A stretch of DNA of 64,000 bases from contig NZ_MDJS01000001.1 in assembly GCF_001705515.1 (NCBI RefSeq), positions 1,612,001-1,676,000 on the forward strand, written 5' to 3'. Positions 4,023-31,950 of this stretch are shown here, in pieces. Within the stretch, counting starts at the first letter, position 1; every line of letters begins with the position of its first letter. The position numbers were made by a program, and so were the translations under genes. Below the pieces are notes generated by a model. That model saw nothing but the letters and a program-made list of their open reading frames with translations. It made no database searches and was not told the origin of the DNA. This stretch comes from Mucilaginibacter sp. PPCGB 2223. GTDB taxonomy: Bacteria > Bacteroidota > Bacteroidia > Sphingobacteriales > Sphingobacteriaceae.

Positions 4023-4544
4023 TCATAATGGCAAAGCTACCGGCGACTTGGCTTTTTTGTTAATATGATCTTCGGCAAGGAAAGACAGTCTTTCATCCAT
4101 ACCTTTCTCGTTCGACTCTGCTTCGTGAAATACCTTGGCCGCCTCCTTTAAGTCGAGCAGATTAGCGAAAGTTGCCGCCGTTCCGTACATGCTGATCTTA
4201 AAATGGCAAATACTTTGTACAGATGCTAAAAGAGATGCATCCCGCACGTCCGACAGCGAACAGGCTGCCAATTTATCGTCAGTCTCATCAATGTAAGCTT
4301 TCATAACCCGGTTAGCGATACTGATCGCATTGATCTGCTCCGCGGCCGCATAGGCATTCAGTTTTTCAATATGGCTTTCTGTTTGCTGATTGTACTCCTG
4401 CAGAAGCATTTTGAGCGGTAAGGCACCGGCCTTTTTTGACCATACAACCAGGCTGTTGGCCAACTCAGCTTCAGCGCTGATTAACCTTCGGATGTCGTCA
4501 TCCAGCAACTGCCGGAGGATGGTAATTGTCGAATTTGTTTCCAT
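4023..4544 (-). CDS. DUF892 (YciE/YciF-like) ferritin-like protein
   Basis: 173 aa, the usual length for the family. The opening LRQLLDDDIRRLISAEAEL, the HIEKLNAY segment and a helical FKISMYGTAATFANLL stretch match DUF892 proteins, which fold as ferritin-like four-helix bundles and are induced by general stress in enterobacteria. Acidic and His residues spaced along the helices could bind a di-iron centre, but no reaction is established. First gene of a two-gene unit with the HAD-ATPase; ATG at 4544 lies 19 bases below the -7 box, so the leader is short. A broken paralogue follows upstream at 4640-5138. Confidence 0.85.
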   Translation of the reverse strand: METNSTITILRQLLDDDIRRLISAEAELANSLVVWSKKAGALPLKMLLQEYNQQTESHIEKLNAYAAAEQINAISIANRVMKAYIDETDDKLAACSLSDVRDASLLASVQSICHFKISMYGTAATFANLLDLKEAAKVFHEAESNEKGMDERLSFLAEDHINKKAKSPVALPL

Positions 4545-4563: not shown

Positions 4564-4629
4564 CAAAACTACCTTGGGCACTTTGCAATGGCCTTGACTC
4601 CCGTCACAACTCCGCATGATCGTTGTCAC
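4564..4629 (-). promoter_or_regulatory. FNR-like tandem operator and promoter of the DUF892/HAD-ATPase unit
   Basis: Read on the minus strand: dyad GTGACAACGATCAT (4616-4629), then dyad GTGACGGGAGTCAA (4594-4607) with centres 22 bp apart, then 23 bases from the end of the GTCA core to the -7 box TAGTTTTG (4564-4571). Both dyads are perfect TGAC-N4-(A/G)TCA. The promoter-proximal centre falls near -41.5, the class II position of FNR/CRP activators. Confidence 0.78.
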
Positions 4630-4639
4630 TATGCGAAAA

Positions 4640-5138
4640 TTATCGATAACTCAGGTGTAGTTCTTCGTCTGCCAGGTGGTACAGGCGATTATTGATTTCG
4701 CGCTCGTTGCTTTCCAGAAAATAAAAAAATGAGGCTACTGTGTCCTTGTGCAAAACTTCGGCAAAGGTGGCGGCGGTGTTGTATTTACCTATTTTATAGT
4801 GGTTAATATCCATTAAGCAGGTTAAGATGCAGGTATCCTGATCGCCGGGGGTACAATTGAGAAGCTTTTCGTCAGTTTCTTCTATAAATGTACACACCAC
4901 TGCGTTAGCCAGGCTTAACGAACTGATCTTTTCATCCAACATGGTTTGGTGCATTTTTTCGATGTGTTGATGGATGATATTCAGGTATCTGAACATGATC
5001 ATCTTTAGCTGCGCCGAATGGGCATGGTCGACCCAAACAGTTAAACTGTTTTTTCAACAGCATTTCAGCACTTATAAATCTGCTGGCATCATAATTTAGC
5101 AGGTTAGTAAGAATTGCCTGGTTGGTATGATTTTCCAT
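4640..5138 (-). pseudogene. Second DUF892 ferritin-like gene, one-base frameshift
   Basis: The N-terminus (MENHTNQAILTNLLNYDAS, then RFISAEMLLK) reads from 5138; the rest of the protein (NSLTVWVDHAHSAQLKMIMF onward to 4640) is in another frame. Removing one A from the A6 run at 5049-5054 (T6 on the plus strand) rejoins SAEMLLK to NSLTVW, which aligns directly with SAEAELANSLVVW of the neighbouring paralogue at 4023-4544. The restored product would be about 165 aa. The tandem operators and -7 box upstream are intact and the remaining codons are open. That points to a recent slippage mutation or a sequencing error rather than old decay. Confidence 0.8.
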
Positions 5139-5152
5139 GCCATTTTTAATGG

Positions 5153-5218
5153 CAAAAATAGCCGCGAGGCTACGGCTCTTCTATGATACCTATCAACTGC
5201 TGGATTGATACTCATCAC
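5153..5218 (-). promoter_or_regulatory. FNR-like tandem operator and promoter of DUF892 copy 2
   Basis: Minus strand: dyad GTGATGAGTATCAA (5205-5218), dyad TTGATAGGTATCAT (5183-5196), 23 bases, then a perfect -7 box TATTTTTG (5153-5160). This is the cleanest example of the island motif; both dyads match the classical FNR core TGAT-N4-ATCA. The upstream dyad lies inside the last codons of the response-regulator gene. Confidence 0.82.
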
Positions 5219-6761: not shown

Positions 6762-6827
6762 TAAAATTAAATGCCGGTACCAAACTAAAGAATGACGCCC
6801 GTCAATCCGTCCGGTGATTGGAATCAG
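6762..6827 (-). promoter_or_regulatory. FNR-like tandem operator and promoter of the USP gene at 5891
   Basis: Minus strand: dyad CTGATTCCAATCAC (6814-6827), dyad TTGACGGGCGTCAT (6792-6805), 23 bases, then -7 box TAATTTTA (6762-6769). Dyad centres are 22 bp apart. The box differs from TAnnTTTG only in its last base. Confidence 0.75.
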
Positions 6828-15169: not shown

Positions 15170-15838
15170 TTAATATACCAGTTCCGGCTCTTCAATATCG
15201 AGCTGATTGAGCACGTGGTAAACACCAGGTGCCGCCCATGCCGCATTTTCAGCGTCTTCACTTTCAGCAAACGAACGAACCTTACCGGTAAGTGTTACTG
15301 TAGTGCCACTTACCGTCGGGTGTATTTTATTGGCGTCAATACTTGCACTGCGATGAAAGGCAGCCCTGATCTTTTGCTCCAATTCAATCGGCGAGACACG
15401 TGGTTTCATGGTGATCAGGTTGGTCACCGAACGCACACCTGTTAGGTTTTGTATGGCTGTTCTGGCGCTTACACGCTGGTATTCCCATTCCAGCTCGCCT
15501 TCCAAGGTCACTACCCCGTTCTCCACTTTGATTTTGATCTTGTCGTCAGGTACCGCGCTATGCCACTTAAGCGCATTTAAAACAGCTTGTGCAATCTCCG
15601 CATCTGTTTTACGATAAACTGGTGATACACCTACTTGAATATCTTCAGCAACTGCTTTCACCCCGGCTACATTTTTGGCGGCCTTTTCGGCGTCTATTTT
15701 TTTGGAATATGAATCGACGATCCCTGAAAGGGTAACAACACCGTTCTTTACGGCCACGCCAATTTCTGATGAACTTAAAAATGGTTGCCATTTCAGTTCA
15801 TCCATCACGTCTTTTTGAATTTGACTGTCTGTTTTCAT
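15170..15838 (-). CDS. Three-BON-domain protein (OsmY-like, cytoplasmic)
   Basis: 222 aa made of three BON domains of about 70 residues: 1-72 (VKNGVVTLSGIVDSYSKKIDAE), 78-150 (VENGVVTLEGELEWEYQRVSA), 152-218 (VSGTTVTLTGKVRSFAESEDA). BON domains bind membranes or ligands and occur in osmotic-shock proteins such as OsmY; unlike OsmY this one has no signal peptide. First gene of the BON-USP-phosphorylase unit under the tandem operators at 15876-15941. Confidence 0.9.
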   Translation of the reverse strand: MKTDSQIQKDVMDELKWQPFLSSSEIGVAVKNGVVTLSGIVDSYSKKIDAEKAAKNVAGVKAVAEDIQVGVSPVYRKTDAEIAQAVLNALKWHSAVPDDKIKIKVENGVVTLEGELEWEYQRVSARTAIQNLTGVRSVTNLITMKPRVSPIELEQKIRAAFHRSASIDANKIHPTVSGTTVTLTGKVRSFAESEDAENAAWAAPGVYHVLNQLDIEEPELVY

Positions 15839-15875: not shown

Positions 15876-15941
15876 CAAAGTACGACTGGACCTATGAAAT
15901 TTACTATGATATTGGTCAGGGTGCGATATGATTTTCATCAC
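15876..15941 (-). promoter_or_regulatory. FNR-like tandem operator and promoter of BON-USP-phosphorylase
   Basis: Minus strand: GTGATGAAAATCAT (15928-15941), CTGACCAATATCAT (15906-15919), 23 bases, then GTACTTTG (15876-15883) as -7 box. Both dyads are perfect in the TGA(C/T)-N4-ATCA core and their centres lie 22 bp apart. Confidence 0.75.
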
Positions 15942-29055: not shown

Positions 29056-30168
29056 TTACGATTTTGGCGCCTTGGGCGGAGCTTCGGCGTGAGGGTGATG
29101 CGTGCTTGCGATCAGTTCGTGAGCCTGGGTGCGGGTATGCCCCGGAGGCGCCAATAGCAGCCCGGCTTTTGATAAGCCTATCCAAAGTGTCTGGTTTTGG
29201 AAAGCGATGGTGCCGCCGCCACGTTTGCGTTGCGAGATCATCCTGTTGATGTCGCCTATACAAACCCATGGCTGGTGCAGCGTTATCCCCCATTTGGCAT
29301 GATCGTTGGTTTCGGGCCAGGCCCAATGAGCGCCCATATAGCCTAAATTGATATATTTGATATCGAATGTTTTGTGGATACCGTCCGAATCGGCGATCGG
29401 CGGTATCGGCCCACGGATCCATGTTTCATCGTCCATATCGTCCTGCAATATCGGGCCAACCAAATCGTTCCAAAAGTCTTTGTTCCACTCGCGGTTCTTG
29501 GCAATCACTTTGAAAGGCGTCCCACCGATCGACTTCAGGTCAATACTATCGCCCAGGGGAGCCGGTTTGGTAGCAGTACCCTGAGCAAGCTTGTAAAGCG
29601 CATCGGTATTTGGCAAATCGGCCGTGTTTGGGAAATACACCTGTGGTTCCTGATGGTCGTACATCTGCGCGGCAATCAGACGCGCTGTTGCGATATCGAG
29701 CGATATGCATAAATAGGTTTGCCCGTATTTTGGTGTAGGGTCGGTCGTTGCGTCGGGGTCGGCAAATTTCGGCCACGAATGCAGCAGCCAGAATGCAGTT
29801 CCCGACTGTGTATCGAACGCTAAGACGCCTTTGGTATGTCCCTTACTGCCATCATCGTGCCGGTTAGCTGTTGCAGGCAACTCATCGTTATACAATATCC
29901 AGCCTGTTGTTTTTGCCGGGTTCTTAAAGTTGGCAAATACAGAGTCGAGCGTAAGGTTCAGTGCGCCCTTACCACTGTTAAGCGTATAAGGCGATTTGAG
30001 GATATTCTTTTGCCGGGGATCGGCGTTTGAGTCGATAGTCGAGTCGTAGTAAACATATTCGTAGCCGGTGGCGGCATCGCATCCTACACCTGCATTTAAC
30101 TGTGGCACTTTATAAATAAACCACCAGTCAACGGGTTTGCCGCTTTCATCGAGTGCTGAAACATTCAT
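29056..30168 (-). CDS. Deoxyribonuclease II family protein
   Basis: 370 aa. It aligns by eye with animal DNase II: WWFIYKVP (15-22), GYEYVYYDS, TGWILYNDELP, then the first catalytic motif GHTKGVLAFD (His111), WLLHSWPKF (H130), YGQTYLCIS, and the second HxK motif HAKWGI (His290). Family members cut DNA without metal ions at acid pH, leaving 3'-phosphates. No signal peptide is seen at the annotated start, unlike eukaryotic secreted or lysosomal forms, so localisation is open. The C-terminus is His/Pro/Ala-rich. Bacterial members are sparse. Alone in its transcription unit. Confidence 0.85.
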   Translation of the reverse strand: MNVSALDESGKPVDWWFIYKVPQLNAGVGCDAATGYEYVYYDSTIDSNADPRQKNILKSPYTLNSGKGALNLTLDSVFANFKNPAKTTGWILYNDELPATANRHDDGSKGHTKGVLAFDTQSGTAFWLLHSWPKFADPDATTDPTPKYGQTYLCISLDIATARLIAAQMYDHQEPQVYFPNTADLPNTDALYKLAQGTATKPAPLGDSIDLKSIGGTPFKVIAKNREWNKDFWNDLVGPILQDDMDDETWIRGPIPPIADSDGIHKTFDIKYINLGYMGAHWAWPETNDHAKWGITLHQPWVCIGDINRMISQRKRGGGTIAFQNQTLWIGLSKAGLLLAPPGHTRTQAHELIASTHHPHAEAPPKAPKS

Positions 30169-30313: not shown

Positions 30314-30877
30314 TTACAAGTTATTATGATTTTCAAAACTCCCGGGCTCAGTAATAGTGAGATTTTTGGTTATAGCAGGCATCAGCACTTTCTGCAAGCT
30401 CCATTTTTGAAGAGATAAGGTACCCTGTTCGCGGATAAGTTTTTTTAACCCGCGGCCGGTATAGATGGCACACAACGGCTCTGCAAAAGCATCTTGCCGG
30501 TAGGCATAAAAATCATGGCCCGCATCGTCATTATACGTGTTAATCAGACGTTCGATCGTGGATTTCTGCATATTGATCATATCGCAGGCCAGCAATAACA
30601 AATCTTCATCAGGATACAATGTATGGACGCTCAACAAACCATTCAAAGGCCCGCCTATGTCCATCGAATCGACTATCAATTGATCTCCCGAAAAAAAATT
30701 AAGGTAGGTCAGTTGCTGTGTCTTGTTTATGGAAACCAGTACAGGTAAACCAAATACATTTAGTTTATCTGCCATGTATGCCGCCCAGCAACTGTCTCCA
30801 ATACGGATCAACCCTTTATCGGTTCCCATCCGCCGGCTTTCACCGCCGCATATAATTACACCACGTAGTTGTTTCAT
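30314..30877 (-). CDS. mobA: Molybdenum cofactor guanylyltransferase MobA-like
   Basis: 187 aa from ATG 30877 (an upstream frame to 30946 adds non-conserved residues). N-terminal nucleotide motif LRGVIICGGESRRMGTDKGL is the MobA/GlmU-type LxGGxSxRMGxDK signature; LLACDMINM supplies the metal-binding Asp, and EPLCAIY follows as in MobA. It attaches GMP to molybdopterin for bis-MGD enzymes such as nitrate or formate reductases. No other Mo-cofactor gene is present in the window. Divergent from the Cys-rich Crp/Fnr gene, which hints at shared anaerobic control. Confidence 0.8.
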   Translation of the reverse strand: MKQLRGVIICGGESRRMGTDKGLIRIGDSCWAAYMADKLNVFGLPVLVSINKTQQLTYLNFFSGDQLIVDSMDIGGPLNGLLSVHTLYPDEDLLLLACDMINMQKSTIERLINTYNDDAGHDFYAYRQDAFAEPLCAIYTGRGLKKLIREQGTLSLQKWSLQKVLMPAITKNLTITEPGSFENHNNL

Positions 30878-31037
30878 CCTATAGTTAATCCACATTTCGG
30901 GTGCAGGTTTACTTTCACCGCACAGATTAAGCAAATATACATTCAACGATTTTAAATACGCCAGATCAAGACAAAGCTGACAACCGGAATATCCAAATGA
31001 GATTCAGTAATTCTTTTATAATTTATCAAATAAAATG

Positions 31038-31068
31038 CATTGTTTTTTATTGATAATAAAAAACAATG
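31038..31068. promoter_or_regulatory. 31-bp perfect palindrome between mobA and the crp/fnr-type gene
   Basis: CATTGTTTTTTATT (31038-31051), spacer GAT, AATAAAAAACAATG (31055-31068). It lies in the 374-bp AT-rich divergent region 30878-31251, which holds no gene. It could be an operator for a dimeric regulator or a weak AT-rich terminator; its core does not match the TGA(C/T)-N4-(G/A)TCA dyads of the stress island. Confidence 0.55.
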
Positions 31069-31159
31069 ATTAAAAATTACTGCAACCATCAAAAAAAAAT
31101 GGAACATTTAAAATATCAAAGTAAAAAATCAGACATAATTCGCAATTATTTACACAATC

Positions 31160-31192
31160 TTGCAAAAAACATAAAAAAAAGAATTATTTTTG
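31160..31192 (+). promoter_or_regulatory. Predicted sigma-A-type promoter of the Crp/Fnr gene
   Basis: TTG (31160-31162), 22 bases, TATTTTTG (31185-31192) fits the Bacteroidota -33/-7 pattern. About 59 bases of AT-rich leader precede ATG 31252. No FNR-like dyad is at the -41.5 position, so the gene is not obviously self-activated. Confidence 0.55.
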
Positions 31193-31251
31193 TGAGTTTT
31201 TATTGATTTATATTGAAATAATTATAAAATTATTGATCCTATCGCCCACAT

Positions 31252-31950
31252 ATGAAAAAAAGCAAACACGATTGCGATCTCCAGAGCTGTTTTTTATGCC
31301 GGTCATGTGTCAAAGAGTGGCAGCCTGCTATCAGCGCCAACCGAAAGAACTTTGATGTGAAAAAGGGCGAAGTTATATTTAAGGAGGGCGACCCGGTAAC
31401 CGGTGTTTGCTTCGTATATTCCGGAAATGTTAAAGTTCATAAAAAATGGGGCAATGATAAAGAGCTTATTGTACGGTTTGCAAATAACGGTGCCATATTT
31501 GGCCACAGAGGTTTAAATACAAACACATACCCTATATCTGCAACAGCTTTAGAACCCACCAAAATTTGCTTCTTCGACCTTGATTTTTTCAATGCTACCT
31601 TAAAGGTAAATCACGATTTTGCCTATAACCTGCTCATGTTTTTCGCCAGCGATCTGCAGGAATCTGAAAAACGGATGCGTAACCTTGCCCACATGCCGGT
31701 TAAAGGCAGGCTGGCCCAATCGTTACTTACCCTGAAAGATCAGTTTGGCGTAACTGACAACAACAGGCTTAACATTGAACTTACGCGACAAGATCTCTCC
31801 TCATTTGCCGGCGCCACCTATGAAACTGTTTTCAGAACGATGAACGATCTCATCGCCGATGAATTGATCAAAGTAAACGGCAAAAACATTGTTATTGTTA
31901 ACGAAAAGGGGCTTCTCGAACTTACAAACGACAACCAGTCCGATCAGTAA
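31252..31950 (+). CDS. Crp/Fnr family regulator with N-terminal cysteine cluster
   Basis: 232 aa. An N-terminal Cys cluster C8-x4-C13-x2-C16-x2-C19 precedes a cyclic-nucleotide-binding-like beta-barrel (GEVIFKEGDPVTGVCFVYSG), a long dimer helix and a C-terminal winged helix (TRQDLSSFAGATYETVFRTM). Two more cysteines are C53 and C106. The recognition helix keeps Glu191 and Arg195, the residues that in FNR read the G-C pairs of TTGAT half-sites, while FNR's Ser is Phe here. The Cys cluster could hold an Fe-S centre or zinc. It is a strong candidate for the factor acting on the dyads at 4564-19903; the link is inference. Confidence 0.85.
   Translation: MKKSKHDCDLQSCFLCRSCVKEWQPAISANRKNFDVKKGEVIFKEGDPVTGVCFVYSGNVKVHKKWGNDKELIVRFANNGAIFGHRGLNTNTYPISATALEPTKICFFDLDFFNATLKVNHDFAYNLLMFFASDLQESEKRMRNLAHMPVKGRLAQSLLTLKDQFGVTDNNRLNIELTRQDLSSFAGATYETVFRTMNDLIADELIKVNGKNIVIVNEKGLLELTNDNQSDQ

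What the first reader, a model, noticed from the sequence alone, without database searches (positions are those of the whole stretch)
31252..31950. Cys-rich Crp/Fnr regulator as candidate controller of the island
C8-x4-C13-x2-C16-x2-C19 at the N-terminus resembles an FNR-like Fe-S or a zinc site but with different spacing from E. coli FNR (C20-x2-C23-x5-C29). The recognition helix keeps Glu191 and Arg195 (FNR E209 and R213), which read a TGA core, while FNR's Ser is Phe. That fits a dyad with relaxed outer bases as found in the island. It is divergent from mobA, another anaerobiosis-linked gene.
Basis: partly seen in the sequence, partly recalled or inferred. Interest (0 to 1): 0.7.

Follow-up and report, generated by a model that had tools for sequence, protein, structure and literature searches.

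The report
Iron-sulfur-type regulator of nitrate assimilation
The gene is a real FNR-like, cysteine-rich switch protein, but comparison with related bacteria ties it to nitrate and nitrite assimilation rather than to the stress-gene island in the window, which a different FNR-like protein in the same genome probably controls.

Summary
Across 51 close homologues C13 (51), C106 (50), C16 (50) and C8 (49) are kept, C19 only in 42. This fits an FNR-type [4Fe-4S] site with shifted spacing; no chemistry was done. The island role is not supported. In 45 congeneric genomes all 24 with nirB carry this regulator and 15 lack both; it lies beside nas/nir genes in 10 of 12 named loci. Here the nas cluster is about 160 kb away, with a conserved TGATN4ATCA site 56-57 bp before a -7-like box. 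The island (1-22 kb) does carry FNR-type operators: 13 TGAYN4RTCA (1.2 expected), four pairs exactly 22 bp apart. Such sites stand before a response-regulator-Crp fusion operon in 28 of 30 genomes, including ten lacking this regulator. Whole-genome 22-bp pairs occur in 6 of 12 genomes with the fusion only and 0 of 2 with this regulator only. Against this, one genome with neither has nine, and pairs before BON genes were seen only where this regulator exists. The fusion is the better candidate. A conserved nas leader RNA was found in passing.

The parts
31252..31950 (+). Crp/Fnr-family regulator (P0001), 232 aa
31273..31308 (+). N-terminal cysteine segment C8-x4-C13-x2-C16-x2-C19
   Evidence: sequence. 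In 51 close homologues: C8 49, C13 51, C16 50, C19 42
31567..31569 (+). Codon of C106, aligned with FNR C122
   Evidence: kept in 50 of 51 close homologues and 12 of 12 named relatives
31819..31836 (+). Recognition helix residues Y190-E191-T192-V193-F194-R195
   Evidence: aligned to FNR V208-R213
30947..31251 (.). AT-rich divergent intergenic region between mobA-like gene and crp; no clear operator of either type
   Evidence: no TGATN4ATCA with <=1 mismatch; best matrix scores 4.7 (nas) and 3.0 bits (fusion)
30314..30946 (-). mobA-like molybdenum cofactor guanylyltransferase
   Evidence: PF12804 7.9e-22; MobA equivalog models match below their cut-offs
4595..4628 (.). Island operator pair, TGAYN4RTCA x2, 22 bp apart, before DUF892 gene 4023-4544
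   Evidence: read by another regulator in the best explanation
5184..5217 (.). Island operator pair (the dyad named in the finding), before ORF 4640-5002
6793..6826 (.). Island operator pair between the Usp gene (-) and the histidine kinase (+)
15907..15940 (.). Island operator pair before BON-domain gene 15170-15838
   Evidence: the position recurs before BON genes of other genomes

Best explanation
P0001 is an FNR-like homodimeric regulator. It probably holds a [4Fe-4S] cluster through C8, C13, C16 and C106, a shifted version of FNR's C20, C23, C29 and C122, with C19 dispensable. With its cluster intact (low O2, no NO, enough iron; which signal matters is not known) it binds TATGATN4ATCATA-like sites. 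From a class I-like position it activates the nitrate/nitrite assimilation operons: porin, transporters, nitrate reductase, nirBD and siroheme genes. In this genome it acts in trans on a nas cluster about 160 kb away. The stress island in the window is instead read mainly by the response-regulator-Crp fusion P0002, through TGAYN4RTCA dyads often paired 22 bp apart. Shown by comparison: gene, cysteine conservation, linkage, co-occurrence, operators, promoter spacing. Inferred: the cluster, the signal, activation, and which protein binds which site.
For: Cysteines and FNR alignment. Co-occurrence in G000-G044: nirB+/crp+ 24, nirB+/crp- 0, nirB-/crp+ 6, nirB-/crp- 15 (Fisher p 1.6e-7, relatedness ignored). 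Outside the genus, G083 has a nas cluster without a close homologue, and no site with <=1 mismatch was found before its porin or nirB. The own nas cluster has the order of L048/L049 but without crp between porin and nirD. Operator in a 41-nt interval before the porin: 9 of 21 exact, 15 of 21 with <=1 mismatch, against 0.008 and 0.66 in shuffles. Its centre lies 56-57 nt before TANNTTTA in all 15. NirB, NirD and NarK exceed NCBIfam cut-offs. Island read by the fusion.
Against: In this genome the gene is not in the nas cluster, and its own promoter lacks the site. Six genomes have the regulator without nirB, and other copies sit beside chloride-channel or two-component genes. Six of 21 porin loci have no site at the expected place. 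Cysteine exceptions: L107 lacks C8 and C106, L043 lacks C16, L044 has C8 displaced, L200 lacks C8 and C16. Only three independent changes of the cysteine trait were available, so co-loss is not significant. The nas and island motifs share the core; by matrix, 6 of 11 scored island sites favour the fusion (>5 bits), 2 are neutral and 3 favour the nas matrix, while the own nas site itself scores +2.2 towards the fusion. 22-bp pairs are associated with P0001 (24 of 30 against 7 of 15, p 0.04) about as strongly as with the fusion (30 of 40 against 1 of 5, p 0.03). BON-promoter pairs: 11 of 15 in genomes with P0001, 0 of 9 without. G005 lacks both regulators yet has 9 pairs; it has an unfused Crp protein. 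G003's island stretch is not enriched (1 against 1.3).
Confidence: 0.65

Rival explanations
1. P0001 controls the window's stress island, alone or together with the RR-Crp fusion, since both read a TGA-N6-TCA core.
For: E191/R195 kept; shared core; three of 11 scored island sites, including 5184 and 15929, score closer to the nas matrix; BON-promoter pairs only in genomes with P0001 (11 of 15 against 0 of 9); whole-genome pairs commoner with P0001.
Against: Sites and pairs also in genomes without P0001. Genomes with P0001 but no fusion hold no pair (G021, G041). Of 14 congeneric genomes with the BON gene 4 lack P0001 and 1 lacks the fusion. Two genomes (G031, G017) carry a second fusion copy about 0.7 kb from the BON gene.
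Confidence: 0.18
2. P0001 is a Zn- or thiol-redox-sensing Crp protein: the four N-terminal cysteines form a zinc or disulfide site without Fe-S.
For: Four close cysteines in this protein; no spectrum exists.
Against: C106 at the FNR C122 position is kept in 50 of 51 while C19 is kept in only 42 of 51. Six homologues without the N-terminal cysteines also lack C106; 74 of 76 rows agree.
Confidence: 0.12
3. P0001 regulates nas/nir but senses NO or nitrite rather than O2, in the manner of DNR/NnrR/HcpR-type regulators.
For: Nitrate/nitrite context; FNR-type clusters react with NO (P. denitrificans FnrP, start of the abstract of PMC4771820 in the listing).
Against: No direct evidence either way; HcpR and DNR models were not tested.
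Confidence: 0.3

Closest known systems
E. coli FNR
   Same: Crp fold; C8, C106, E191 and R195 align with C23, C122, E209 and R213; operator core TGATN4ATCA
   Different: Cysteine spacing; F for S212; A instead of T as the commonest outer operator base; far below the NCBIfam FNR cut-off (67.8 of 228); linked to assimilation
P. gingivalis Crp/Fnr protein of PDB 2gau
   Same: Best sequence and fold match among solved structures
   Different: 26% identical; the phmmer alignment begins at residue 30, so the cysteine segment is not compared there
HcpR/DNR/NnrR nitrogen-oxide regulators (PMC1274295, passages read)
   Same: Crp/Fnr proteins regulating nitrogen-oxide genes
   Different: The motifs given there for HcpR2 (GTAACnnnnGTTAC) and delta-proteobacterial HcpR (wyTTGACnnnnGTCAArw) differ from TATGATN4ATCATA
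Cyanobacterial NtcA
   Same: Crp-family regulator of nitrogen assimilation (role recalled)
   Different: Score 52 against a cut-off of 245
B. cenocepacia low-oxygen-activated (lxa) locus (one passage of PMC4505428)
   Same: Possible analogue of the window island: a low-oxygen gene block in an obligate aerobe whose genus has several FNR proteins
   Different: No gene-by-gene comparison made here

Membership tests
Crp/Fnr superfamily | cNMP-like domain plus HTH_Crp_2 | tested here: met
   the 50 listed fold matches are Crp/Fnr-family structures
FNR proper | Central cysteine at C122 | tested here: met
   C106
FNR proper | N-terminal C-x2-C-x5-C ligand spacing | tested here: not met
   C-x4-C-x2-C-x2-C
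FNR proper | Recognition helix E-x2-S-R | tested here: not met
   ETVFR
FNR proper | Score above NCBIfam FNR model | tested here: not met
   67.8 against 228 bits
FNR proper | O2-labile [4Fe-4S] cluster | not testable with these tools
   needs protein chemistry
FNR proper | TTGATN4ATCAA operator | tested here: inconclusive
   nas operator keeps the core but mostly has A outside; binding not tested
Controller of the window island | Island-type operators found only with this regulator | tested here: not met
   but BON-promoter pairs only with it
Regulator of nas/nir genes | Present wherever nirB is present in the genus | tested here: met
   24 of 24 in the 45 congeneric genomes searched
CRP (cAMP-activated) | Score above NCBIfam CRP model | tested here: not met
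   85.8 against 266 bits
HcpR/DNR/NnrR | Family model or tree placement | not tested
   no reference sequences were aligned

The most novel reading that the evidence does not exclude
A lineage of Fe-S Crp/Fnr regulators in which the cluster ligands have slid along the chain (first FNR cysteine lost, a new one gained at position 16) and which has been recruited to couple Fe-S, O2 or NO status to assimilatory nitrate reduction. Control would be double: a class I operator plus a conserved leader RNA in the same operon.
Probability: 0.35. Interest if true: 0.66.

Novelty: new variant of a known kind. Interest (0 to 1): 0.52.

Why it matters
No paper on a Fnr-type nitrate-assimilation regulator in these bacteria turned up in the searches (open-licence PMC only; hits judged from listings). 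If right, it gives a regulator, operator, promoter layout and leader RNA for nitrate assimilation in Mucilaginibacter and Pedobacter, and a natural test of how far FNR cluster ligands can move. It also suggests that two FNR-type proteins in one genome divide near-identical operators, and corrects the assignment of the stress island.

Tried and rejected
Operator in the mobA/crp intergenic region: none found. Independent co-loss of N-terminal cysteines and C106: too few events to test. Separating the regulators by flanking-base matrices: mixed result. Separating them by presence of 22-bp pairs: both associate. Structural distances between cysteines: no coordinates were returned, only confidence (pLDDT 84.3; residues 1-10 about 50) and fold matches. 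Rfam on an 801-base stretch with the nas leader: only NsiR1 below its gathering score, on the opposite strand. A TTGC-N4-GCAA dyad was not followed.

Counting limits: row L063 for nirB had a slicing error (18,389 bases); it can affect only the 34-site table, not the porin counts or the matrices. In one search the shuffle step failed and was redone, which drops 6 of 51 upstream regions of 60 bases or less. In some searches one fusion locus (L149) was not oriented and counts as a miss. One search read two BON loci wrongly (no start at the expected place); one search replaces it, with G005's BON gene left out (53 bases upstream). Homologue counts use 76 non-redundant sequences of 112 hits; proteins over 290 aa were dropped. 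The nirB and fusion searches covered 45 of the 73 congeneric genomes. After the recount I lowered the best explanation from 0.68 to 0.65 and raised the island rival from 0.15 to 0.18, because of the BON-promoter pairs.

Full report
What is there. The ORF at 31252-31950 encodes a 232-residue Crp/Fnr protein. Its N-terminus reads C8-x4-C13-x2-C16-x2-C19, with further cysteines at 53 and 106. I took E. coli FNR from NC_000913.3 and aligned it with the family: C8 falls on FNR C23, C106 on C122, E191 on E209, F194 on S212 and R195 on R213. C13 falls on residue 28, next to C29. The divergent neighbour is mobA-like. The named observations are correct; C106 is the addition that matters most.

Which cysteines matter. 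In 51 homologues (47% identity or more) forming one supported branch of the tree, C13 is present in 51, C106 in 50, C16 in 50, C8 in 49 and C19 in 42; C53 is unique to the window protein. In 12 named relatives C13 and C106 are in 12, C8 and C16 in 11, C19 in 6. Several more distant homologues of the class carry a C-x2-C-x4-C arrangement near FNR's and also keep C106; six rows without the N-terminal cysteines lack C106, and 74 of 76 rows agree. The two that disagree are L107 and L096_1299. L107 has lost C8 and C106 together; L200 lacks C8 and C16 but keeps C106. The tree offers only three independent changes, so this is suggestive rather than a test. Reading: FNR-type four-cysteine site, ligands C8, C13, C16 and C106, one ligand shifted.

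Where the family lives. Of 45 fetched stretches with a close homologue (38 genomes), 20 have nirD and a NarK-type transporter within about 7 kb, most of them with nirB, uroporphyrinogen methyltransferase, a porin and a nitrate-reductase-like gene. Other copies sit beside a chloride channel or two-component genes. Of 12 named loci, 10 have nas/nir genes in view (L194 only a nitrite/sulfite-reductase-like one); L198 is a 4.6-kb contig and L199 has none. NirB, NirD and NarK of the own genome exceed NCBIfam cut-offs; the molybdenum enzyme matches nitrate reductase and formate dehydrogenase models below cut-off. In 45 congeneric genomes (G000-G044) nirB and the regulator (E<=1e-70) occur together in 24, neither in 15, the regulator alone in 6 and nirB alone in none (relatedness not corrected for). 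Outside the genus, G083 has a nas cluster without a close homologue, and its porin and nirB upstream regions have no site.

This genome. The nas cluster lies at C1:1466490-1481704, about 160 kb from crp, in the order of L048 and L049 but with crp missing between porin and nirD. The site AATATGATATAAATCATTTT remains, 226 nt before the alignment-corrected porin start.

The nas operator. In 21 porin loci an exact TGATN4ATCA lies between -235 and -195 in 9 and with at most one mismatch in 15; first-order Markov shuffles give 0.008 and 0.66. In all 15 loci with a site, its centre is 56-57 nt before a TANNTTTA box, close to the -7 element of this phylum (consensus recalled); this is a class I-like distance. 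Similar sites stand before many nirB genes. The mobA/crp intergenic region has none, so self-control and control of mobA are not supported.

The island. TGAYN4RTCA occurs 13 times in 1-22000 (1.2 expected, 0 of 200 shuffles reached it) and four pairs are exactly 22 bp apart, before two DUF892 ORFs (one below the Pfam cut-off), a Usp gene and a BON gene. Island stretches of other genomes show the same spacing and no pair at 20, 21, 23 or 24 bp. Over whole genomes, the 22-bp pair occurs in 54 of 80 congeneric genomes, while the same pattern read backwards occurs in none of the 80; this genome has seven, four of them in the window. This is a genuine regulon.

Who reads the island. The best candidate is P0002, a response regulator fused to a Crp protein with helix ETVSR, beside a PAS histidine kinase and hemN. 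The promoter region of its operon has three exact sites in this genome. At least one TGAYN4RTCA lies there in 28 of 30 genomes (1.1 in shuffles), including all 10 that lack P0001; at one fixed position it is 25 of 30 (0.12 in shuffles), 8 of those 10. Pairs occur in 6 of 12 genomes with the fusion but without P0001, and in 0 of 2 with P0001 but without the fusion. In G030, which lacks P0001, the fusion is the only match to P0002's Crp half at E<=1e-10, and the genome has seven pairs. In G031 and G017 a second fusion copy lies about 0.7 kb from the BON gene.

Against that. Pairs associate with P0001 (24 of 30 against 7 of 15) about as strongly as with the fusion (30 of 40 against 1 of 5). Before BON genes a site is found in 14 of 15 cases with P0001 and 6 of 9 without, but a pair in 11 of 15 and 0 of 9; the genes without P0001 are mostly more distant copies. 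G005 lacks both regulators and has nine pairs; it has an unfused Crp protein of 241 aa frame. G003's island stretch is not enriched. So P0001 is not needed for the operators, but a shared role is not excluded.

Limits. No binding, expression or cofactor was measured. The two motifs share the core; flank matrices do not separate island sites cleanly.

Literature. FNR's four cysteines, [4Fe-4S] cluster and TTGATN4ATCAA box are as stated in passages of PMC4505428. HcpR motifs are from passages of PMC1274295. Passages of PMC8510549 and the outline and abstract of PMC13370916 were seen. Searches for a Fnr-type nitrate-assimilation regulator in this group found none (listings only).

Noticed in passing
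L115 about 2505-2570, complement (G000:C1:1477536-1477549 core): Conserved leader of the nas operon: hairpin with loop GGUCGCA(U/G), some stem pairs changing with compensation, followed by conserved GCUUUAACAA; GGTCGCA found in 25 of 27 porin upstream regions, before two porin types. The exact 14-mer core is found at most once per genome, in 20 of 73 genomes: 19 congeneric ones, all with nirB, and G073. No Rfam match above gathering score.
   Followed up: partly
window 4595-4628, 5184-5217, 6793-6826, 15907-15940: Tandem FNR-type dyads exactly 22 bp apart as a regulon signature; present in 54 of 80 congeneric genomes, reversed control in none.
   Followed up: yes
G000:C1:1461215-1462267 (L114:6216-7268, -): Response-regulator-Crp fusion beside a PAS histidine kinase and hemN, with three exact TGATN4ATCA sites at the kinase promoter region.
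   Followed up: partly
window 29056-30168 (-): DNase II family protein (PF03265, 7.9e-73), a family better known from eukaryotes (recalled).
   Followed up: no
L057, L064, L065, L075, L079, L083 and others: Related branch of the regulator beside a chloride-channel gene, helix ending ET(L/F/W)FK instead of ETVFR.
   Followed up: no
L093:9275-10060 (-): Homologue with five N-terminal cysteines, C-x2-C-x4-C-x1-C-x2-C, a possible intermediate between FNR spacing and the shifted spacing.
   Followed up: no
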